Positions 3,910-39,080 of a stretch of DNA of 39,080 nt are shown here, in pieces. The DNA is from a virus, in IMG/VR virus record IMGVR_UViG_3300031576_000162, positions 1 through 39,080 of that record; one strand, 5' to 3'. Position 1 is the stretch's first letter, and each line of letters starts with the position of its first letter. Under the pieces are notes generated by a model. The model was not told the DNA's origin, did not search any database, and saw only the letters and a program-made list of their open reading frames with translations. The position numbers were made by a program, and so were the translations under genes.

Positions 3910-4486
3910 AGCCCCACCCCGCCCGCGCCAGCTCGTGAACGGAGGCGACCCCGACGCCCCGTACTTCCTGCCCCTTGACGAGCTCTTCAACGGAGCCTAC
4001 TTCGCGGCGTCTGACCTGGACGGGATGGCGACCGCGCTGCTCGAGGCCTACGAGCTCGACCTGCAGCCGCACCGGACGTTCGACGTCGCCTATCTGTGGA
4101 AGCAGAAGGGCGGGACGCGTGACGGCAAGGCGGTGCTCGGCAAGTGCGTCCTGGTGCGCGGGCTGCTCGCCCACTTCTGCCCGGCGCGGTTCATCATCTG
4201 GCTGGCCGCTGACCACCTGCGCGACGCGAAGGCGTCGCGCTATCTGGTCGAGGCGATCCTGTACCACGAGATGCTGCACGTCGGGGAGGACGAGGACGGG
4301 GAGCCGGTGCTGATCCCCCATGAGTTCACGGGCTTCGCTGCCGAGCTACGCCGCTATGGCGCCTATACGCACGACCTGCGTGTCGCGCACCAGGCGTTCG
4401 AACAGATGCCGCTCTTCGAGCTGGACCCGCTGACGGCGGCGAGAGAGCTGCGCGTCGAGCTGGACAACCTAACGCCGGATGCCTAG
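3893..4486 (+). CDS. Putative phage metallopeptidase (HExxH)
   Basis: 197 residues, ATG 3893 behind AAGGAGG. The zinc-protease signature HEMLH lies at residues 125-129 with a further conserved His in IPHEF (143). The rest (LFNGAYFAASDLDGMATALLE, FDVAYLWKQKGG, ARFIIWLAADHLRD) fits the phage putative-metallopeptidase family (PF18894 type, by recall). Such proteins occur in early operons of many phages and their substrate is not known. The gene overlaps the next by 8 bp. Confidence 0.8.
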   Translation: MTMTTEAPPRPRQLVNGGDPDAPYFLPLDELFNGAYFAASDLDGMATALLEAYELDLQPHRTFDVAYLWKQKGGTRDGKAVLGKCVLVRGLLAHFCPARFIIWLAADHLRDAKASRYLVEAILYHEMLHVGEDEDGEPVLIPHEFTGFAAELRRYGAYTHDLRVAHQAFEQMPLFELDPLTAARELRVELDNLTPDA

Positions 4487-5279
4487 CCGCACGTCGATCG
4501 GCTGGTGCGACCTGACGAGCAACCCGCTCTATGCGGTGCGGAAGAGCGACGGGAAGCGCGGCTGGTGGTGCTCCAAGGTCAGCCCGGGCTGCGCGCACTG
4601 CTACGCGGAGGTGTTGAACAAGCGCTGGGGGAACGAGGTGCCGTACCTGCCGGCGAACGTCGACGACATCGAGTGGCGCCTGGACGAGCGCGAACTCGGG
4701 GCCCTGGTGCGCCGCCGGAAGCCGGCGCGCATCTTCCTGGGCAGCATGACGGACGTGTTCCACCCGACCATCCCGGGCGAGCTGCTCCGGGAGGTCTTCC
4801 TACAGATCGCGATCGCGCACCACCATACATTCCAGGTGCTCACGAAGCGCCCACGGGAGGCGAAGGAGTTCCTCGACACCCTGGGCGGCGTCTTCGCTTC
4901 GGACATGTGGCCGTTACCGAACCTCTGGCTCGGCGTGTCGGTGGAGAACCAGTGGTGGGCAGAGGAGCGCATTCCGGTCCTGCTCACCCTCCCGGCCGCG
5001 GTGCGCTTCGTCTCCTGTGAGCCGCTGCTCGGGCCGCTCGATCTCAACCGATGGCTGATGCCGCGCCGCTACCGGGCGATCGACTGGGGCATCATCGGCG
5101 GCGAGTCGGGGCCGGCGTGCAGGGTCATGGACATCGACTGGGCGCGCGACCTGCTGGGGTCGTTCGGCGCGGCATCCGTGCCGGTGTTCTTCAAGCAATC
5201 GTCTGACCGCTTCCCCGGCCGCGGCCGCGAGCTCGACGGGGAGACGTTCGAGCAGTTCCCAGAAGGAGCAACGCGATGA
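4479..5279 (+). CDS. Phage Gp37/Gp68 family protein (DUF5131)
   Basis: 266 residues starting at ATG 4479 inside the end of the peptidase gene. The hallmarks of DUF5131 are present: SIGWCDLTSNP at the start, the cysteine cluster SKVSPGCAHCYAE, LGSMTDVFHP, FQVLTKRP, LWLGVSVENQWWAEERIP, FVSCEPLLGPLDL and GIIGGESGPACR. The cysteines could bind a metal or iron-sulfur cluster, which is inference. The family is frequent in phage early regions and its reaction is not firmly known to me. The gene overlaps the next start (ATGA at 5276). Confidence 0.85.
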   Translation: MPSRTSIGWCDLTSNPLYAVRKSDGKRGWWCSKVSPGCAHCYAEVLNKRWGNEVPYLPANVDDIEWRLDERELGALVRRRKPARIFLGSMTDVFHPTIPGELLREVFLQIAIAHHHTFQVLTKRPREAKEFLDTLGGVFASDMWPLPNLWLGVSVENQWWAEERIPVLLTLPAAVRFVSCEPLLGPLDLNRWLMPRRYRAIDWGIIGGESGPACRVMDIDWARDLLGSFGAASVPVFFKQSSDRFPGRGRELDGETFEQFPEGATR

Positions 5280-6580: not shown

Positions 6581-6726
6581 GGAACTACAAGAAGCGCCTC
6601 GCCGCCTGGGCGAAGAAGAACGTGCTCGCCGACGGCCAGGGCGCGCGGAAACGAAAGCCGGTGCACCGTCGAGGCGTAGGCTCGAAGCGGCACAAGCGCG
6701 CCATCTCGACGGGGAAGCTGCGATGA
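6577..6726 (+). CDS. Small very basic protein
   Basis: 49 residues from GTG 6577 (GTGA overlap with rusA) to TGA 6724-6726 (ATGA overlap with the ATPase). About a third of the residues are Lys or Arg (RNYKKRLAAWAKKN, RKRKPVHRRGVGSKRHKR). Its position, locked between two real genes by start-stop overlaps at both ends, is the main evidence. It is probably a nucleic-acid-binding peptide, function unknown. Confidence 0.55.
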   Translation: MRNYKKRLAAWAKKNVLADGQGARKRKPVHRRGVGSKRHKRAISTGKLR

Positions 6727-8573
6727 AGCCGAAGCAGATCGGGAAGCTCACCTCGACCGGAGCCGGCGTCTACCTGCCGGAGGACGCCGTGACGCAGGGG
6801 TTCGCCATCCTCGCCCGCCGTCGCAGCGGGAAGTCGCAGCTGGCCGGGGTGATGGAGGAGACGTTCTGCGCTCGCGGTGATCCGTGGGTCTGCCTGGACC
6901 CGGCGAGCGCGCACTGGGGCATCAAGTACCGCGACGAGGGCGCCCGTCCGGGCCAGGCCTCCGGCTACGAGGTGCTGGTCGTCGGCGGGAAGTACGGCGA
7001 CGTCGCCCTGGACGAGCGGATGGGCGAGGCCCTCGCCGACATCGTCTGCGAGACGAATATCTCGTGCATCATCGACCTGAAGATGTCGACGATGGCCGCG
7101 CGGAAGCGCTTCGTCACCGACTTCGCCAACCGCCTCTACGCCGTCAACGAGACGCCCAGGCACATCTTCCTGGAAGAGGCCCACGAGTTCGTCCCACAGG
7201 TCCCGCGCTGGGAAGAGCAGAAGCTCGTCCTCGGCGCCCTGGAGCGGCTCATCAAGGGCGGCGGCGGCCAGGGCATCGGCTTCACGCTGATCAGCCAGCG
7301 ACCGGCCGCGGTGAGCAAAGAGGTGCTGACCCAGATCGACAACCTCTTCGTCCTGCGCATGAGCGGCCCGCAGGACCTCGCCGCCGTGAAGGACTGGTTC
7401 GACCACAACGTGGGGGACAAAGACCGGCTGCGCGAGATCCTCGGCGCCCTGCCGTCGTTCAAACGCGGCGAGGCCTGGCTACTCTCGCCGGAGTGGCTCG
7501 GCAAACTCAAGCGGCTGCAGGTGCGCCTGCGCGAGACCTACCACGCCGGCCGGACGCCGGAGCGCGGCGAGAAGCCGGTTCAGCCGAAGCGCATCGAGCT
7601 CGGCCGCGTCATCGAGCAGTTCAAGACGGCCGCCGAGCAGCGCCACATGGCCGTCCAGGAAGAGAAGGACATTCGAAAGCGGAACGCCGAGCTGACGGCG
7701 GAGGTCGAGCGGCTTAAGAAGAAGTCGGCGCCGCCCGACCAGGCGGTCGTCGAGCGCGCGGTCGCTGACGCCCTGGCGAAGCAGGAGCGCGAGCACGAGG
7801 CCGAGGTCGCCGCCTTGCATCTCCGGATCGAGACCATGATCGAGGAGCACAGAGCCGATCTGAGACGGGTCCAGGTGGCGGCCATCGATGTTCCCGTGGC
7901 TCATCTGCAGGAAGGGCTGGCGCGGCTTCAGGGGCTCAAGGAAAAGGTCCGCGCTGGCGCGGTGGGCCTAACCCCGAAACACCGGGTTCACAGTACCCGG
8001 GAACCCGTGAAACCGCCCCCGCCGGCCCGAATCGTGAACACGCCTCCTCGCGGCGTGAACGAACCGGCCCCGATCGTGAACGACGAAGGCGGCATCAGCG
8101 GTCCCCAGCAGCGCATCCTCGACAAGCTGAGCGAGCTGGAGGCGGTCGGCATCGCCGCGCCGGATCGCAGAATCGTCGCTGCGCTAGTAGGCTACCACGC
8201 CCGGACAAAGGCGTTTATCAACGGCCTGGGCGACCTGCGCTCGCGCGGGTACATCGAGTACCCACAGCCCGGCATACTGGCTCGGACGCCAGCCGGCTAT
8301 GCCTTATCGGCGCCAGCCGCGAGGCCCGCCGGCCTGCACGAGGGGGTCAAGCAGCAGCTGAGCGGTCCCCAGCAACGCATCCTCGATCTGCTCATCGGCG
8401 CCTACCCGGACGCGTTCGACCGCGCCGAGCTTGCGGGACAAGTCGACTACCACGAGCGGACGAAGGCGTTCATCAACGGCCTGGGGAAGATGCGCTCGAT
8501 GGGGATCATCGACTACCCACGGCCCGGCCAGGTCGCCGCGACCAAGATGCTTTTCCCGGAGGGCCTTGCTTGA
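6723..8573 (+). CDS. HerA/DUF87-type ATPase with two C-terminal repeat domains
   Basis: 616 residues. ATPase domain about 1-275: Walker A ARRRSGKSQL (31-40), Walker B HIFLEEAHEF (147-156) with the EEAH typical of HerA/FtsK-like proteins, and the sensor or arginine region LISQRPAAVSKEVLTQIDN (189-207). A coiled coil occupies about 300-415. The C-terminus holds two copies of a roughly 65-residue module: SGPQQRILDKL (459-) and SGPQQRILDLL (547-), each followed by RTKAFINGLG and a P-G tail, probably winged helices binding DNA. Likely role: DNA translocase or helicase acting in replication, recombination or nuclease loading. The partner nuclease in cellular HerA systems is NurA, which was not seen here. 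Confidence 0.8.
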   Translation: MKPKQIGKLTSTGAGVYLPEDAVTQGFAILARRRSGKSQLAGVMEETFCARGDPWVCLDPASAHWGIKYRDEGARPGQASGYEVLVVGGKYGDVALDERMGEALADIVCETNISCIIDLKMSTMAARKRFVTDFANRLYAVNETPRHIFLEEAHEFVPQVPRWEEQKLVLGALERLIKGGGGQGIGFTLISQRPAAVSKEVLTQIDNLFVLRMSGPQDLAAVKDWFDHNVGDKDRLREILGALPSFKRGEAWLLSPEWLGKLKRLQVRLRETYHAGRTPERGEKPVQPKRIELGRVIEQFKTAAEQRHMAVQEEKDIRKRNAELTAEVERLKKKSAPPDQAVVERAVADALAKQEREHEAEVAALHLRIETMIEEHRADLRRVQVAAIDVPVAHLQEGLARLQGLKEKVRAGAVGLTPKHRVHSTREPVKPPPPARIVNTPPRGVNEPAPIVNDEGGISGPQQRILDKLSELEAVGIAAPDRRIVAALVGYHARTKAFINGLGDLRSRGYIEYPQPGILARTPAGYALSAPAARPAGLHEGVKQQLSGPQQRILDLLIGAYPDAFDRAELAGQVDYHERTKAFINGLGKMRSMGIIDYPRPGQVAATKMLFPEGLA

Positions 8574-22954: not shown

Positions 22955-25450
22955 ATGGCCGACGCTCGTCTCGAAATCTTGATGTCGCTGCGAGACGATG
23001 CGTCGCGCGCGCTAGAAGGCGTACGGGGGAGGCTGGGGCCCCTGGGCTCCGGCTTCTCACGCTTCGGCTCGATCGCGAGCACGGCGATGCGTACGCTGCG
23101 CCAGGCCATCCTGCCGGTGACGGCGGCGCTGGGCGGCGCCATCTTCGTCGCGTTCAATTTCGCCTCGGCCGCGTCAGACTTGGCTGAGGCGCAGAACAAG
23201 GCGAACGTCGTCTTCAAGGGCGCAGTGGGCGTCGTCAATGAGTTCGCGAAGACCTCGGCCAACTCGTTCGGCATCTCGAACCGGAAGGCGCTCGACTACG
23301 CGGGCACGCTCGGCGGGATCCTGCAAGTGAGCGGGCTGACGCAAGAGGCGTCGGCCGGCATGTCGGTGGAACTCATCAAGCTGGCCGCCGACCTGGCGTC
23401 GTTCAACAACATCCCGATCGACGAAGCGCTGGAGAAGATTCGCTCGGGGCTGGTGGGCGAGGCGGAGCCGCTGCGCACCGTCCAAGTCCTACTGTCGGAA
23501 GCGCGGGTAGCGGAGGAGGCGTATGCGACGGGCATCGCCGCGACGGGGGCCGTCCTGACCGAGGCGCAGAAGGTGCAGGCCCGCTACCAGGTGATCATGA
23601 AGGACACGGCGCTCCAGCAGGGCGACTTCACGAACACGATGGGGGGCCTCGCCAACATGCAGCGCCGGGTGGGGGCGCTCTGGGAGGAGCTCAGGGCTAA
23701 CCTCGGCGAGGCGCTGCTGCCGGTGATAGAGCGCGTCTTCGGGGTGCTGGTCGCTGTGCTCGGGAATCCGATCGTCCCCGTAGCCATCGGGGCCATCACG
23801 GGGGCCATCTCCGACCTGGCGAGCGTCTTCTCGGGCGCCCTCCTGGGCGATACGCAGAAGTGGGCCGACGCCTATAGTCGATTGCCTGACCCGCTCCAAC
23901 GCGTCGCCGATGTCGTCACGGACGTCGCACTGTTTCTCCGCCAAGACCTCGGCCCGGCGGTGAAGGACACCGCTCTCGCGGCGAAGGACCTGGCCGAGGA
24001 ATGGGGGCCGAAACTGTGGGATCCGTTCAAGACGGGCGTCGAAACCGTTCGCGACGTTGGTCAGCCGGCGATTGAGGAGTTTGTGAACTTCATCATCGAC
24101 AACAAGCCCGCGCTGATCGTGGCGATCGCCGCGATCGGCGTCGCCATCTTCCTTGCCCTGGGCCCGGTCTCGCAGGCGGCGATCGCGATCACCGGTCTGA
24201 TCATGCTCATCGGGTTCGTGCGGGACAACTTCGACGAGTTGAAGCCAATCCTGTCCGGCGTCGCGGCGGGCATGGCTGTCGTGGCCGGGGTGATTACCGT
24301 GGCGCTCCTGCCGGCACTGGTTGCGTGGGCGGTGGCAGCAGCGGCGGCCGCCGCTGCGACGCTGCTCCCGCTCCTGCCTCTCATCGCGGTCGGGATTGCC
24401 GTCGGCGCCCTGGTCTACCTGATCGTCGCGCACTGGGACACGATCGTGCGCGTGACGAAGGCGGTCTGGAACACGGTGAAGGACTTCCTGCTCGGCAACT
24501 GGCAGGAGATTCTGAAAATCGCGTCGCTCATCCTGCTTGGCCCGGCGGGGCTGGTCGTGCTGTTCACGACGAACGCCTTCGGCATCCGGGACAAGGTGGT
24601 CGCCGCGATCGGTGCGATCCCCGGGCTGCTGCGCGGCCTGGCGGGAGACTTCTTCGGCGCAGCGTTCGATCTGGGGGCCAAGCTAATCGACGGGCTGAAG
24701 GACGCCCTCACGGGTGTGGGCGGCTTCGCTTCGGACGTCGGGAGCGCCGTGCTTCGCGCGGTGAAGTCGGTGGTGAACCAGGTGATCCGCGAGATCAACA
24801 GCGCCCTGGAGTTCAAGATTCCCGTGCCGTTCGCACCCGACATTTCGATCAATCCGCCCGACATTCCGGAGCTGGCACGAGGCGGCCCCGTATCGGCAGG
24901 CAGGCCCTACCTCGTCGGCGAGCGAGGGGCGGAGCTGTTCATCCCGCAGGTGGCCGGACAGATCGTCCCGGCGACGCAAGGTGCCGCCTCGGCCGAGCCG
25001 AATGGGCTCGCGCAGGTCTGGGACTGGGCGCGCTCGCAGTTGCGCGGTCTACTCCAGAGCATCGTCGAGAGATCAATGTCAGTGGGTCGGGCCGCCCAAC
25101 GCGTGTTCGAGGACATCAGGTTTGCTGGACTGCAACGCGGCGGGCTCGTGCCCGCAGGCGTGACCATGCCGGCGATCCTGCACGGTCCGGAGGCGGTTCT
25201 GCCGGTGCCGGACCTGGCATCGCTGGCGGCGCGGGTCGGGGCGATGATGGTAGAGCGCGTCTCGTTCCCTGCGCTGCAGCGGCGGGCTGGGCTGACGCCA
25301 GCGCTGGCGAGCGGCGCTGGTGTCGCGCCGATCGCCGTGACGATCAACATCGGCACGCTCGGCCCCGGCGTCCGCCGCGCCGACGTGCGGGAACTGTACG
25401 ACTGGTTCCTGGATGAGGCTCGCGACCGCGGCCACCGGAGGATCGGCTAA
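22955..25450 (+). CDS. Tape measure protein
   Basis: 831 residues, the longest tail gene here and right after the chaperones. N-terminal helices (ADARLEILMSLRDDASRALE) then long helical stretches (GVVNEFAKTSANSFGISNRK, LTQEASAGMSVELIKLAADL). Hydrophobic segments around residues 380-420 and 430-490 (AIGVAIFLALGPVSQ, VAWAVAAAAAAAATLLP) are usual in tape measures, which may line or penetrate the membrane. At about 1.5 angstrom per residue a tail near 120-130 nm is expected, an estimate from the family rule. Confidence 0.88.
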   Translation: MADARLEILMSLRDDASRALEGVRGRLGPLGSGFSRFGSIASTAMRTLRQAILPVTAALGGAIFVAFNFASAASDLAEAQNKANVVFKGAVGVVNEFAKTSANSFGISNRKALDYAGTLGGILQVSGLTQEASAGMSVELIKLAADLASFNNIPIDEALEKIRSGLVGEAEPLRTVQVLLSEARVAEEAYATGIAATGAVLTEAQKVQARYQVIMKDTALQQGDFTNTMGGLANMQRRVGALWEELRANLGEALLPVIERVFGVLVAVLGNPIVPVAIGAITGAISDLASVFSGALLGDTQKWADAYSRLPDPLQRVADVVTDVALFLRQDLGPAVKDTALAAKDLAEEWGPKLWDPFKTGVETVRDVGQPAIEEFVNFIIDNKPALIVAIAAIGVAIFLALGPVSQAAIAITGLIMLIGFVRDNFDELKPILSGVAAGMAVVAGVITVALLPALVAWAVAAAAAAAATLLPLLPLIAVGIAVGALVYLIVAHWDTIVRVTKAVWNTVKDFLLGNWQEILKIASLILLGPAGLVVLFTTNAFGIRDKVVAAIGAIPGLLRGLAGDFFGAAFDLGAKLIDGLKDALTGVGGFASDVGSAVLRAVKSVVNQVIREINSALEFKIPVPFAPDISINPPDIPELARGGPVSAGRPYLVGERGAELFIPQVAGQIVPATQGAASAEPNGLAQVWDWARSQLRGLLQSIVERSMSVGRAAQRVFEDIRFAGLQRGGLVPAGVTMPAILHGPEAVLPVPDLASLAARVGAMMVERVSFPALQRRAGLTPALASGAGVAPIAVTINIGTLGPGVRRADVRELYDWFLDEARDRGHRRIG

Positions 25451-34512: not shown

Positions 34513-35226
34513 ATGCCCGCCGGCCCGCTCCGCGTCTCGTCACACGCGGTCTACCTGTGGAACCGACCCCTGGAGGGCGCCGCACCCAATACCATCGCCC
34601 CCAGCGGCATCGCCTCGGCGGAGGCGTTCGGTTCGGCTCGCCTGGTGGCGACGATCCGGCCAACGGGGGTTGATAGCGGCGAGGCCCATGGTTCGCAGCG
34701 GCTGCTCGGCCTCCTGCGGCCGGCGGGCGTCGCCAGCCAGGAGGCGCTGCCGGCGCCGCGCCTGGTCGGGCTGCTGCGGCCGGCGGGCATCCCGAGCGGC
34801 GAGGCCTTCGGGTCGCACCGGCTGCTGGGGCGCATCGTGGCCGTCGCCATCGCGAGCGGGGAGGCCTTCGGCGCGCCGATCGTGCAGCAGGCCGTGACTA
34901 TCTTGCCAGCCGGCATCGTCAGTGCCGAGGTGTTTGGAGCAGCAGCGCGGCTGATCGCGCTGCTGCGACCGGCGGGCGTCGCGTCCGCTGAAGCGCTGGG
35001 CTCGCCGCGCTTGGTCGCCATCCTGCGACCGGCGGGGCTGGCCACAGCCGAGGCTTTCGGCGCCCCGTTGTTCGTGGTCGTGATCCGCCCGGGCAGCATC
35101 GCGAGCGCCGAGCAGTTCGGGCTGCTCGCCATCGTGTCGGGCATCGTCTCGCCGGCGATCCTCCACCTCTGGGGGCACCAGCAGCTGGTGCTGGTCGGCG
35201 CCGGCCATCGACAGGACATCATCTAG
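34513..35226 (+). CDS. Repeat protein with nine 20-residue EAFG units
   Basis: 237 residues starting right after the previous stop. After a short N-terminus (VSSHAVYLWNRPLEG) nine units follow with core PAGIASAEAFGSPRL and hydrophobic end (VGLLR type). Units 5 and 6 are 22 and 21 residues, the others 20. The DNA repeat is a diverged 60-bp unit, so it was made by old tandem duplication. The C-terminus (SPAILHLWGHQQLVLVGAGH) is unrelated. A beta-solenoid or beta-helix is plausible. It probably is a virion or fibre part. Confidence 0.65.
   Translation: MPAGPLRVSSHAVYLWNRPLEGAAPNTIAPSGIASAEAFGSARLVATIRPTGVDSGEAHGSQRLLGLLRPAGVASQEALPAPRLVGLLRPAGIPSGEAFGSHRLLGRIVAVAIASGEAFGAPIVQQAVTILPAGIVSAEVFGAAARLIALLRPAGVASAEALGSPRLVAILRPAGLATAEAFGAPLFVVVIRPGSIASAEQFGLLAIVSGIVSPAILHLWGHQQLVLVGAGHRQDII
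34600..35150 (+). repeat. Diverged 60-bp tandem repeat within the gene
   Basis: Nine units of about 60 bp, coding for x-x-G-[IV]-x-S-x-E-A-x-G-x-x-R-L. Typical DNA core is GCCGGCGGGCGTCGCC or close variants near each unit start. Limits approximate. Confidence 0.7.
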
Positions 35227-35242
35227 CGGAAGGAGCTGAGAC

Positions 35243-35851
35243 ATGAGCGCGCTGCAGCCGATCGGGTTTGGGTTCGACAAGGCGTGGTTCCTCGGCGAGG
35301 ACAAGACGCTGCGGTTCTACGTCGGCACCGGGGAGGCGGTCGAGGTCACAGAGCGGGCGGTGAAGAACGCAACGACCATCCTGGTCAGGCCGCTGCTGGA
35401 GCCGATCGCGTCCGGGGCGAAGGTGCGGTTCCGCCCACACGGCAAGAACGTCGCCGGCGTCGTCGCGACACTCTCGGCCGCCGCGGCCTTTGGCGACACG
35501 TCGCTGGCCGTCAGCGCGCTGCCCGGCGCCGTCCAGACGGGGTTCAGGGGCTACGCGATGGAGGACATCACGAGCTGGACTCTGGCCTGGTCGCTGCGGG
35601 AGGGGGCCTACGAGTCGGCGCCGGCGCTGATCGCGAAGGCCACGCCGTCGGGCAGCGGCATCAACATCTTCGACGGGCCGAACGCCATCGTCGACGTTGC
35701 GATCGCAGACGACGACACAGTCAACTCTGGCACGGGAGCGCTCCTCCTACAGCCAGGGACATACCAGCACGCGCTCAAGCGCACGAACTCGGGGGCGGAG
35801 ACCGTGCTCGCCTTCGGTCCGGCCAGACTCCAGCTCCCGTCGGCGCGCTGA
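35243..35851 (+). CDS. Structural protein, baseplate/tail-fibre N-terminus type
   Basis: 202 residues, ATG 35243 behind GGAAGGAG. Contains FFLGEDKTLRF-like text (WFLGEDKTLRFYVGTGEAVE), a coil, GYAMEDITSWTLAWSLREG, and GPNAIVDVAIADDDTVNSGT then HALKRTNSGAETVLAFGPAR. This order of beta strands is seen in phage upper-baseplate-like proteins. It is the last gene of the late block; the structured non-coding region follows. Confidence 0.55.
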   Translation: MSALQPIGFGFDKAWFLGEDKTLRFYVGTGEAVEVTERAVKNATTILVRPLLEPIASGAKVRFRPHGKNVAGVVATLSAAAAFGDTSLAVSALPGAVQTGFRGYAMEDITSWTLAWSLREGAYESAPALIAKATPSGSGINIFDGPNAIVDVAIADDDTVNSGTGALLLQPGTYQHALKRTNSGAETVLAFGPARLQLPSAR

Positions 35852-35858
35852 AAGCCCA

Positions 35859-35975
35859 GCGCGAGCGGGGGCGCAGGACGGCGCGGTCGGCAACGGCGCG
35901 ACCCGGTCGCGGGGGGCTTCGTCTCGCCCTCGCGGGCCGGGGGCGCAGGTGTCCTGCGCCCTTCCCCGCTCGCGC
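35859..35975. other. Structured element 1: 21-bp inverted repeat with competing hairpin
   Basis: The left arm 35859-35879 (core GCGAGCGGGGGCGCAGGAC) is complementary over its full length to 35951-35975 (GTCCTGCGCCC, TT bulge, CCCCGCTCGCGC). The right arm can alternatively pair with 35941-35949 to make GGGCGCAGG-TGT-CCTGCGCCC, because GGGGGCGCAGG occurs twice. Two exclusive folds like this suit a terminator/antiterminator. Base pairing was done by eye. Confidence 0.7.
35941..35961 (+). terminator. Probable late-operon terminator hairpin
   Basis: GGGCGCAGG-TGT-CCTGCGCCC, a perfect 9-bp stem, followed by TTCCCC. It lies 90 bp after the last late gene. The weak T-run makes it imperfect. Confidence 0.5.
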
Positions 35976-35993
35976 CGGGCGGGCGGGCCCGGC

Positions 35994-36074
35994 CAGGGCC
36001 CCGCGAGGGGCGCCACGTCCAGGCTCTCTCAGCTGACGGATGCGCTGGCGCCGAAAGAGCCTCGCGGGGCCCTG
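35994..36074. other. Structured element 2: 15-bp stem, bulge, 7-bp stem
   Basis: CAGGGCCCCGCGAGG (35994-36008) pairs perfectly with CCTCGCGGGGCCCTG (36060-36074). Directly inside, GGCGCCA (36009-36015) pairs with TGGCGCC (36046-36052), leaving a 7-nt one-sided bulge GAAAGAG, and CGTC pairs with GACG farther in. A 22-bp helical element of this kind is beyond a plain terminator. Confidence 0.7.
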
Positions 36075-36089
36075 ATCGGGCCCGCCGGG

Positions 36090-36143
36090 AGGCCGGTTCC
36101 TGAACATCTGCCAAGAACGAGGCCGAAAAGCAGGAACCGGCCT
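36090..36143. other. Structured element 3: 13-bp inverted repeat
   Basis: AGGCCGGTTCCTG (36090-36102) and CAGGAACCGGCCT (36131-36143) are perfect reverse complements separated by 28 nt (AACATCTGCC...AAAAG). It follows element 2 by 15 nt. Confidence 0.7.
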
Positions 36144-36251
36144 GGTACATGGGCGTAGGTGGTTTCGCCGTCTCTCGGCGCTGTGCGCGCCGGAGCGGCG
36201 GGATTAGGGGCCTACCCTGGCGATATTATCGGCGGGTAGACGACCAGGGCG

Positions 36252-36518
36252 TCAGAGAACCCACCAGGGCACGATGGCGTCGGGAGCGCGCGGCGTCTCG
36301 GCGAGCAGCTCCTCGAGGGGACCGCGCACGATGGCGTCGGCGCCGGCGTCGGGCGAGCCGGAGCGCTCGAGGACGAGGAGCGCCTGGTCGACGGTGAGGC
36401 AGAAGGTATGGCAGGTCCCGGCGTAGGCCAGGAGCTCGAAGAACGAGTGGCCGGTGCGCGCCTTCAGCGCGGCGAGCAGCTGGAAGGGCGTGGGTCGCTC
36501 CGCGACGGCGGTCGGCAT
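36252..36518 (-). CDS. Hypothetical protein, minus-strand accessory gene
   Basis: 88 residues from ATG at 36518 (minus), preferred over an upstream TTG because GGGAGG lies six bases before it. Residues: ERPTPFQLLAALKARTGHSF, FELLAYAGTCHTFCLTVDQA, ending AIVPWWVL. No family recognised. It is downstream of the minus gene 36620-36892 and would sit near one prophage end after integration at attP. Confidence 0.6.
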   Translation of the reverse strand: MPTAVAERPTPFQLLAALKARTGHSFFELLAYAGTCHTFCLTVDQALLVLERSGSPDAGADAIVRGPLEELLAETPRAPDAIVPWWVL

Positions 36519-36573
36519 AGACAACCTCCCACCATCAGGGTAGCAAGGACGTTCTAGCGAAGGAGGGCCTTAC

Positions 36574-36714
36574 ATGGTTGAGTACGAAGTGCTAGCGACA
36601 GAGCGCGAGGCCGGGGTCTTCACAGCCTCCGACCTCGAGGGAGAGCCGAACCAATCTGTCGGCGCACGGCTGCGAGCGCTTCTTCATCTTCTGCGACGAA
36701 GAGGTAGCAGATAG
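36574..36714 (+). CDS. Short ORF, plus strand, antisense to the end of a minus gene
   Basis: 46 residues from ATG 36574 behind a very good site (GAAGGAGGGCCTTAC). Reads MVEYEVLATEREAGVFTASD then LEGEPNQSVGARLRALLH. Its last about 95 bases are antisense to the gene at 36620-36892, so both cannot be strongly selected there. The strong ribosome site and sensible N-terminus argue for it, the overlap against it. Confidence 0.35.
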   Translation: MVEYEVLATEREAGVFTASDLEGEPNQSVGARLRALLHLLRRRGSR

Positions 36715-36892
36715 CGTGGACCGCAGCTCGACCGTTCCCCTTGAGCCGATACGACGTTTGCTGGCTTAGCCAAGCGACAGCCGCCGCCGGCTCCACTCCG
36801 GCGTAGGAGACCTGGCCTCCGGTGATGGCGGCCGCTGTGTCCCTAGCGATAAGCCCCATCACATCCCTGATGCGCTGATCATCGAGCGTCAT
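36620..36892 (-). CDS. Hypothetical protein, minus-strand accessory gene
   Basis: 90 residues from ATG at 36892 (minus) behind AGGAGGAGGTCAACGAG. Contains DQRIRDVMGLIARDTAAAIT, GVEPAAAVAWLSQQTSYRLK and AICYLFVAEDEEALAAVRRQ. No helix-turn-helix is obvious and no family is recognised. It is the first minus gene after the promoter at about 37090 and its leader, and is on the attP side, so it could be expressed in the prophage. Confidence 0.65.
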   Translation of the reverse strand: MTLDDQRIRDVMGLIARDTAAAITGGQVSYAGVEPAAAVAWLSQQTSYRLKGNGRAAVHAICYLFVAEDEEALAAVRRQIGSALPRGRRL

Positions 36893-36965
36893 CTCGTTGA
36901 CCTCCTCCTATCGAGCCAGTCCCCGCGCGCGTTTGCCAGTCGACAAGAGTTGGGTAGAGGAAACG

Positions 36966-37003
36966 GGCGTGGCCCCCGGGTCTTGCGACCGAGGGGCCAC
37001 GCC
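36966..37003 (-). other. Nested hairpin in minus-strand leader
   Basis: GGCGTGGCCCC (36966-36976) pairs perfectly over 11 bp with GGGGCCACGCC (36993-37003), and inside GGTC pairs with GACC around TTGC. It lies between the minus promoter and the gene start. No T-run on either strand, so an attenuator or stability element is more likely than a full terminator. Confidence 0.5.
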
Positions 37004-37016
37004 GTTCGCCGTTCTC

Positions 37017-37074
37017 CTCGCCGGGTGTTGAAACCGTCGCCTGGAGGCAAGCCCCAGTGAGGGAAACCGGCGAG
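37017..37074. other. 58-nt two-helix element next to minus promoter
   Basis: CTCGCCGG (37017-37024) and CCGGCGAG (37067-37074) form an 8-bp base. Inside, CTGG-A-GG and CC-CCAG form a second hairpin with CAAG loop. The internal loops are GTGTTGAAACCGTCGC and TGAGGGAAA. A minus transcript starting near 37080 would fold this first. Confidence 0.45.
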
Positions 37075-37086
37075 TTGTACGACCAC

Positions 37087-37097
37087 ATTGTAGCACA
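37087..37097 (-). promoter_or_regulatory. Extended -10 promoter, minus strand
   Basis: On the minus strand TGTGCTACAAT: a TACAAT box (37087-37092) preceded by TGnTG-like TGTGC, as in extended -10 promoters; the -35 is weak. It would start near 37080 and drive the gene at 36892. Confidence 0.4.
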
Positions 37098-37120
37098 CCC
37101 TTTTCGATAGGTGCTTGTTC

Positions 37121-37169
37121 TGGTCGGGGCGACTGGATTCGAACCAGCGACCTCCTGAACCCCATTCAG
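37121..37169 (-). other. attP: Candidate attP core: 3' part of a tRNA-Pro(GGG) gene
   Basis: On the minus strand it reads from position 28 of a tRNA to its CCA end: anticodon stem CTGA, loop ATGGGGT with anticodon GGG, stem TCAG, variable AGGTC, T arm GCTGG-TTCGAAT-CCAGT, acceptor strand CGCCCCG, A73 and CCA. G72 with A73 is the bacterial tRNA-Pro signature (C1:G72). Upstream of position 28 the match stops (base 27 is G, not the C needed). Integration here would rebuild the host tRNA. Confidence 0.85.
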
Positions 37170-37249
37170 CGACGCTAACCGAAGCGGCTTGGAGAGGGCG
37201 ATAGCGGGCGGGTTAGCGGGGGCGAGAGGTGGTCGGTTAGGCGGACAAC

Positions 37250-37278
37250 TAGACAGGCGCTTACGCGCCTGTTATAAT
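37250..37278 (+). promoter_or_regulatory. Strong promoter with palindromic operator in its spacer
   Basis: TAGACA (37250-37255), 17-bp spacer, TATAAT (37273-37278). Positions 37253-37272 are the perfect palindrome ACAGGCGCTTACGCGCCTGT (8-bp arms, TTAC centre), filling the space between the two boxes. A dimeric repressor bound here would block RNA polymerase. Confidence 0.8.
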
Positions 37279-37284
37279 TGCGGT

Positions 37285-37340
37285 ATCCTTCCAGGGTTGC
37301 AGCGGCGCCCTCCTTGCCGGGGGGCGCCGCTGTTTTCTCG
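37285..37340 (+). ncRNA. Candidate tiny RNA (about 50 nt) between promoter and terminator
   Basis: Transcription from the promoter at 37250-37278 should begin near 37285 and end at the T-run 37333-37336. No ORF fits. The short 5' part (ATCCTTCCAGGGTTG) is unpaired and the rest is the terminator stem. It may be an attenuated leader of the early operon or a stand-alone small RNA. Confidence 0.5.
37300..37336 (+). terminator. Intrinsic terminator
   Basis: CAGCGGCGCCC (37300-37310) and GGGCGCCGCTG (37322-37332) form an 11-bp perfect stem with 11-nt loop, followed by TTTTC. It is the best intrinsic terminator in the window, about 20 nt downstream of the -10 box. Confidence 0.85.
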
Positions 37341-37440: not shown

Positions 37441-37473
37441 GTTGACCACCTGATCCGTAATCAGGAGGTCAAC
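37441..37473. promoter_or_regulatory. 14-bp dyad (operator-like)
   Basis: GTTGACCACCTGAT (37441-37454) faces ATCAGGAGGTCAAC (37460-37473) with one mismatch and a CCGTA centre. It lies 25 bp upstream of the early -35 box. The centre CTGATCCGTAATCAG also resembles an anticodon arm of tRNA-Thr(CGT) (see findings). Confidence 0.6.
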
Positions 37474-37527: not shown

Positions 37528-37572
37528 CCCCATGTTGAAACCGTTTCGTAGCCTGGAAGGAGGCAACCCATC

Positions 37573-38734: not shown

Positions 38735-39080
38735 TGCGACGCATGGAATCCTCGAAGGCCCTGCTCGAGCGCTATATCGCCGCCCTGGACGCGTGGCCGA
38801 CCGATCCGACGACGAACGAAGACGCGATCCGTGCGGCGTTCCAGCGGCATTATGCTGCGCTCAAGCAGCCAGCGCCTACCGAGATTATCACAGCGCACAC
38901 ATTCCTCGACGCCCGCGCCGCCCTCGACGCCCGCGCCGCCCGCGACGCCCGCGACGCCCGCGCCGCCCGCGACGCCCTCGCCGCCCGCGTCGCGGGCGCC
39001 GCCCGCGCCGCCCTCGCCGCCCGCGCCGCCCTCGCCGCCCTCGCCGCCCTCGACGCCCGCGACGCCCTCGCCGCCCGCGA
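38731..39080 (+). CDS. DUF6745-like protein, 5' part (continues at base 3)
   Basis: ATG 38731 overlaps the preceding stop (ATGATG; 38734 and 38743 are alternatives). N-terminus SSKALLERYIAALDAWPTDP, TTNEDAIRAAFQRHYAALKQ, PAPTEIITAHTFLDARAALD, then the 9-bp array to the window end. The frame equals that at base 3, so one gene spans the join. Array content here differs from that at 72-247 in five positions, all amino-acid changing (for example L to R and D to A). Confidence 0.85.
   Translation, partial: MMRRMESSKALLERYIAALDAWPTDPTTNEDAIRAAFQRHYAALKQPAPTEIITAHTFLDARAALDARAARDARDARAARDALAARVAGAARAALAARAALAALAALDARDALAAR
38834..39080. repeat. Terminal direct repeat (copy 2)
   Basis: Copy of bases 1-247. 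Differences occur in array units 4, 5 (two bases), 6 and 14 only, each at base 2 (T/G) or base 5 (A/C) of the unit; the remaining 242 bases agree. Confidence 0.9.

What the first reader, a model, noticed from the sequence alone, without database searches (positions are those of the whole stretch)
35859..36143. Three consecutive large inverted repeats in a gene-free region: candidate structured RNA or DNA element
Within 285 bp there are three imperfect-to-perfect long stems: 21 bp (35859-35879 with 35951-35975), 15+7 bp with a GAAAGAG bulge (35994-36015 with 36046-36074), and 13 bp (36090-36102 with 36131-36143). The first has a built-in competing hairpin because GGGGGCGCAGG occurs twice. No gene of credible coding character overlaps. 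Convergent operons explain one terminator, not three domain-sized helices. It could be a phage non-coding RNA, a processing or packaging site, or a replication element.
Basis: seen in the sequence. Interest (0 to 1): 0.65.

Follow-up and report, generated by a model that had tools for sequence, protein, structure and literature searches.

The report
Stacked hairpins ending a phage operon
Where the tail genes of a temperate phage meet two genes running the other way, a 400-base gene-free stretch folds into three very long hairpins plus two smaller ones; they are real and unusual and most likely form a two-way barrier that stops or protects transcripts, but no relative was found with which to prove what they do.

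Summary
Three long stems lie at the stated places, and stem 2 is longer than reported (11+15+7 bp). Each folds far better than dinucleotide shuffles (z -4.7, -5.3, -5.6; whole block -8.3 on +, -9.5 on -). None of 1500 shuffles gave even two exact stems of 12 bp. The stretch shows no codon-position signal. Two smaller hairpins continue the block almost to the stop codon of the next gene.

The block fills the gap between the last + strand gene of the tail end (stop 35851) and a convergent - strand gene (stop 36252), about 1 kb before an attP-like tRNA-Pro(GGG) 3' end. No hairpin has a T tract, although the same genome has a canonical T-tract terminator at 37299-37340. Both strands fold about equally well. 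Best explanation: a bidirectional, U-less hairpin-cluster terminator or transcript-end barrier insulating the late operon from genes beside attP (0.5). An independent RNA (0.2) is not excluded: no homologue of the region was found, so covariation is untestable here.

In about 0.9 Mb of related phage DNA, gaps called convergent held none, one or two long stems, never three; one other phage (L030) has a comparable triple array, beside a superinfection-exclusion gene.

The parts
35243..35851 (+). last + strand gene of the tail end (202 aa, no family); its stop codon is 2 nt before the hairpin block
   Evidence: codon-position GC 0.64/0.53/0.91, as in real genes; no family
35854..35980 (.). hairpin 1: 4 + 12 bp outer stem, inner 10 bp or an alternative multi-branched fold owing to the duplicated CGGGGGCGCAGG
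35982..36086 (.). hairpin 2: 11 + 15 + 7 bp stem with a 7-nt bulge GAAAGAG; the loop (36022-36027) can also pair with the bulge and its flank (possible pseudoknot, weak)
36090..36143 (.). hairpin 3: 13 bp perfect stem, 28-nt loop
36150..36209 (.). hairpin 4: smaller imperfect GC hairpin
36212..36241 (.). hairpin 5: CTACCC..CGATA / TATCG..GGGTAG, directly 3' of the stop codon of the - strand gene
   Evidence: sequence
36252..36524 (-). convergent - strand gene (90 aa, no family)
   Evidence: codon-position GC 0.71/0.53/0.92; no family
36620..36892 (-). second - strand ORF (90 aa, weaker coding character)
   Evidence: codon-position GC 0.70/0.53/0.66; no family
37121..37169 (-). attP-like site: exact 3' half of a tRNA-Pro(GGG) gene, which places the hairpin block about 1 kb from the prophage end

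Best explanation
The block is an operon-boundary element: a cluster of long GC hairpins without T tracts that acts on RNA from either strand. RNA polymerase leaving the tail operon, or leaving the - strand genes next to attP, makes RNA that folds at once into successive very stable helices; these stall or dislodge polymerase and/or block 3' exonucleases, so that both sets of transcripts end in the block. In the integrated prophage this would separate late transcription from genes beside the attachment site and from the host chromosome. Shown: the hairpins, their significance, their convergent placement, lack of coding signal, lack of T tracts, and similar stability on both strands. Inferred: that they end or protect transcripts; that the - strand genes are expressed in the lysogen.
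For: The block starts 2 nt after one stop codon and hairpin 5 lies about 10 nt from the opposing stop codon. Both strands fold equally well, as a two-way device needs and a one-strand RNA does not. G-T pairs are not concentrated on one strand. Hairpin clusters just downstream of stop codons, without U tracts and favoured in GC-rich genomes, were matched to RNA-seq ends in 13 bacteria (Gupta and Pal 2021, PMC8355165). GC-rich hairpins without U tract also mark E. coli transcript ends, interpreted as exonuclease-trimmed ends after Rho termination (stated in PMC13289151). Another GC-rich phage contig, L030, has three consecutive stems (11, 14, 17 bp or more), also without T tract, 3' of a - strand gene matching superinfection-exclusion proteins.
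Against: No hairpin has a T tract, whereas the same phage has a canonical one at 37299-37340, so the host polymerase probably uses T tracts. One hairpin would seem to suffice: gaps called convergent in annotated or related phages have none, one or two long stems, some followed by T-rich sequence. Stems of this length exceed the short hairpins of the published cluster model. The stretch downstream on + is G-rich, not C-rich, so Rho loading there is not suggested. No transcript data exist.
Confidence: 0.5

Rival explanations
1. A phage structured non-coding RNA, either processed from the 3' end of the late transcript (for example by RNase III) or transcribed on its own, with hairpin 2 (bulge, possible pseudoknot) and the switchable hairpin 1 as functional domains.
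For: Very high stability; duplicated CGGGGGCGCAGG gives two competing folds; bulge plus flank and loop of hairpin 2 are complementary over 6 bases (2% of shuffled loops reach this).
Against: No Rfam match, even at lax threshold; no promoter match near it; both strands fold equally well; no homologue, so no covariation; the bulge taken alone is not special.
Confidence: 0.2
2. A DNA-level element (replication origin, primosome or packaging site, recombination target) that works through cruciforms or single-stranded hairpins.
For: Strand-symmetric perfect stems in a gene-free gap; a protein with a DnaA N-terminal domain lies 1.4 kb away.
Against: The terminase gene lies far away (24 kb upstream in the map); no iterons or repeat arrays in the block; the attP-like tRNA match is 1 kb away; similar hairpins in other phages sit at gene 3' ends.
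Confidence: 0.12
3. Neutral by-product: inverted repeats made by template switching or replication slippage in GC-rich DNA and not yet decayed.
For: No conservation can be shown; stems are nearly perfect, as young inverted repeats would be.
Against: Three to five unrelated hairpins side by side exactly filling the gap between two stop codons, rather than one; elsewhere in the phage only a few comparably long exact stems occur.
Confidence: 0.15

Closest known systems
Hairpin-cluster terminators without U tract (Gupta and Pal 2021, PMC8355165)
   Same: Hairpins less than 15 nt apart, close to the stop codon, no poly-U needed, favoured in GC-rich genomes
   Different: Their hairpins are mostly 4-10 bp; here the three main stems have 12 bp to 33 bp, in a phage, between convergent genes; termination not shown
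Canonical intrinsic terminator at convergent gene ends (for example the gap at 24569-24659 of Mycobacterium phage Kevin1, L123)
   Same: Position between convergent genes
   Different: Kevin1 has a single 14-bp stem followed by TTGTTGTG; here three long stems with no T tract
Triple hairpin array of viral contig IMGVR_UViG_3300010361_000046 (L030 3067-3206)
   Same: Three consecutive GC-rich stems of 11, 14 and 17 bp or more, no T tract, gene-free gap in a GC-rich phage
   Different: Different stem sequences; lies 3' of a superinfection-exclusion lipoprotein gene with the next called gene in the same direction; shorter loops
Large structured RNAs such as GOLLD and ROOL
   Same: Large structured gene-free RNA candidates, some known from phages (own knowledge)
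   Different: No Rfam match at gathering or lax thresholds; simple successive hairpins

Membership tests
Canonical intrinsic (Rho-independent) terminator | GC-rich hairpin | tested here: met
Canonical intrinsic (Rho-independent) terminator | T tract directly after the stem | tested here: not met
   tails of five hairpins on both strands listed; best is TTTCAGC after hairpin 1 on -; no site in the terminator scan of 35000-37200
U-less hairpin-cluster terminator (Gupta and Pal) | two or more hairpins less than 15 nt apart, close to the stop codon | tested here: met
   block begins 2 nt after stop 35851; gaps between hairpins 1-6 nt
U-less hairpin-cluster terminator (Gupta and Pal) | RNA-seq drop at the cluster | not testable with these tools
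   no transcript data
U-less hairpin-cluster terminator (Gupta and Pal) | short stems (2-10 bp) | tested here: not met
   exact stems 12, 15, 13 bp, longer with extensions
Conserved structured non-coding RNA | match to a known RNA family | tested here: not met
Conserved structured non-coding RNA | covariation across homologues | not testable with these tools
   no homologue of the region; hits in Chloroflexota genomes are short GC-rich matches of 22-70 bases
Rho-dependent termination region | C-rich, G-poor stretch next to the transcript end | tested here: not met
   36150-36300 has G 62, C 43 on +; the antisense of 35700-35851 also has G over C

The most novel reading that the evidence does not exclude
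The block is a new kind of phage RNA: a roughly 300-nt, exonuclease-proof chain of dsRNA-like domains with a switchable first hairpin, released from the end of the late transcript and acting in trans, for example on host RNases or defence.
Probability: 0.08. Interest if true: 0.75.

Novelty: new variant of a known kind. Interest (0 to 1): 0.36.

Why it matters
If confirmed, it would be an unusually strong two-way transcription boundary without U tracts in an uncultured phage of probable Chloroflexota or Planctomycetota hosts, lineages whose transcription termination is little studied (own judgement). Together with L030 it suggests that chains of long hairpins at gene ends recur in GC-rich temperate phages, which a wider scan could test.

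Tried and rejected
Homologues: flanking proteins and hairpin DNA in viral contigs, phages and plasmids, portal and last-gene protein in Chloroflexota genomes, reading of related contigs: nothing syntenic; the portal relatives at 51-55% share only head genes. DNA search in 400 Chloroflexota genomes gave only short GC-rich matches, judged chance. Stop-codon read-through or frameshift into the block: frames are open but without codon-position signal. Defence-system or named-family role of the flanking genes: none. Rho model: composition does not fit. Strand preference from G-T pairs: none. Structure prediction was not run: the flanking proteins have no relatives to align.

Full report
Setting. 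The window is a 39,080-base virus record. Its ends repeat (1-247 against 38834-39080, 242 of 247 identical), so it is probably a complete circularly assembled genome. It codes for a tyrosine integrase (1924-2892), RusA-like resolvase, large terminase, portal, major head protein, an HNH endonuclease, a tape measure protein and minor tail proteins: a temperate siphophage. At 37121-37169 lies the exact 3' half of a tRNA-Pro(GGG) gene; the central 46 bases occur in 26 bacterial contigs, mostly Planctomycetota and Chloroflexota, and the match to the phage stops inside the tRNA, at the anticodon stem. This is what an attP site looks like, and it points to such hosts. The nearest portal relatives found (51-55%) are in Chloroflexota genomes, the only phylum searched that way.

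Observation. All three stems are present. Hairpin 2 is larger than reported: 11 bp (35982-35992 / 36076-36086), one mismatch, 15 bp, then 7 bp after the GAAAGAG bulge. Hairpin 1 has two competing folds because CGGGGGCGCAGG occurs twice. Two lesser hairpins continue to 36241. Energies are far below dinucleotide shuffles, and 0 of 1500 shuffles yielded two stems of 12 bp or more, against three observed.

Not coding. GC by codon position is flat (0.73-0.80) in every frame of 35852-36150, while the gene before it (0.64/0.53/0.91) and the - strand gene after it (0.71/0.53/0.92) show the usual bias. The block therefore fills a true gap between convergent genes.

Comparison. In 801,682 bases of related phage loci, 60 exact stems of 12 bp or more were found and no group of three within 400 nt. 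With stems of 10 bp or more and crude gene calls, 57 gaps called convergent (window included) held seven stems in all, three of them in this block. A further set of related contigs had none or one per such gap, single stems reaching 18 bp. The closest analogue is L030, with stems of 11, 14 and 17 bp in 140 nt, 3' of a gene matching superinfection-exclusion proteins. Four loci have pairs of long hairpins after the terminase gene. In annotated phages single stems occur at convergent ends, some followed by T-rich sequence. Gene calls for unannotated loci were made from codon-position GC and are approximate.

Mechanism. Position next to both stop codons and equal folding of both strands fit a two-way transcript boundary. 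The lack of T tracts excludes a canonical terminator by definition; this phage also holds a canonical one, 37299-37340, directly after an 11-of-12 sigma-70 promoter match. U-less hairpin clusters have been linked to transcript ends in 13 bacteria (PMC8355165), and U-less GC hairpins to trimmed, protected ends in E. coli (PMC13289151). I therefore favour a U-less cluster that stalls polymerase and/or protects 3' ends from both sides, and give it 0.5. A stand-alone RNA remains possible; hairpin 2 could form a small pseudoknot (6 complementary bases, 2% of shuffles), which is weak.

Limits. Function is inferred, not shown.

Noticed in passing
window 37250-37340: Sigma-70 promoter match (TAGACA, 17 nt, TATAAT, with TG before it, 11 of 12) whose spacer region holds the palindrome ACAGGCGC-TTAC-GCGCCTGT, followed about 20 nt later by a canonical T-tract terminator: a possible very short RNA or repressor-controlled leader (sequence).
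   Followed up: partly
window 37121-37169: attP-like exact 3' half of tRNA-Pro(GGG); the same 46 bases occur in Planctomycetota, Chloroflexota and a few other genomes.
   Followed up: yes
window 38890-39080 and 60-610: Long low-complexity GC-rich repeat inside an open frame at the assembly junction, coding for Ala/Arg/Asp/Leu-type repeats.
   Followed up: no
window 4479-5279: DUF5131 protein (PF07505, E 6.7e-63), also matching PADLOC candidate models PDC-M41B and PDC-M30B.
   Followed up: no
window 6723-8573: 616-aa protein with weak matches to HerA-type ATPases and to a terminase-annotated PHROG, upstream of the true terminase.
   Followed up: no
window 37026-37037 and 37533-37544: TGTTGAAACCGT occurs twice, in similar surroundings (CCTGGAGGCAA / CCTGGAAGGAGGCAA); possibly a shared operator or leader.
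   Followed up: no
window 37441-37473: Inverted repeat GTTGACCACCTGAT / ATCAGGAGGTCAAC, 5-nt spacer, upstream of the DnaA_N-domain gene; possible operator.
   Followed up: no
L026 1684-1862, L027 5255-5433, L029 2816-2929, L033 10562-10675: Pairs of long hairpins rich in CCACGTGG-type motifs between terminase and the next gene in 73% GC phages.
   Followed up: partly
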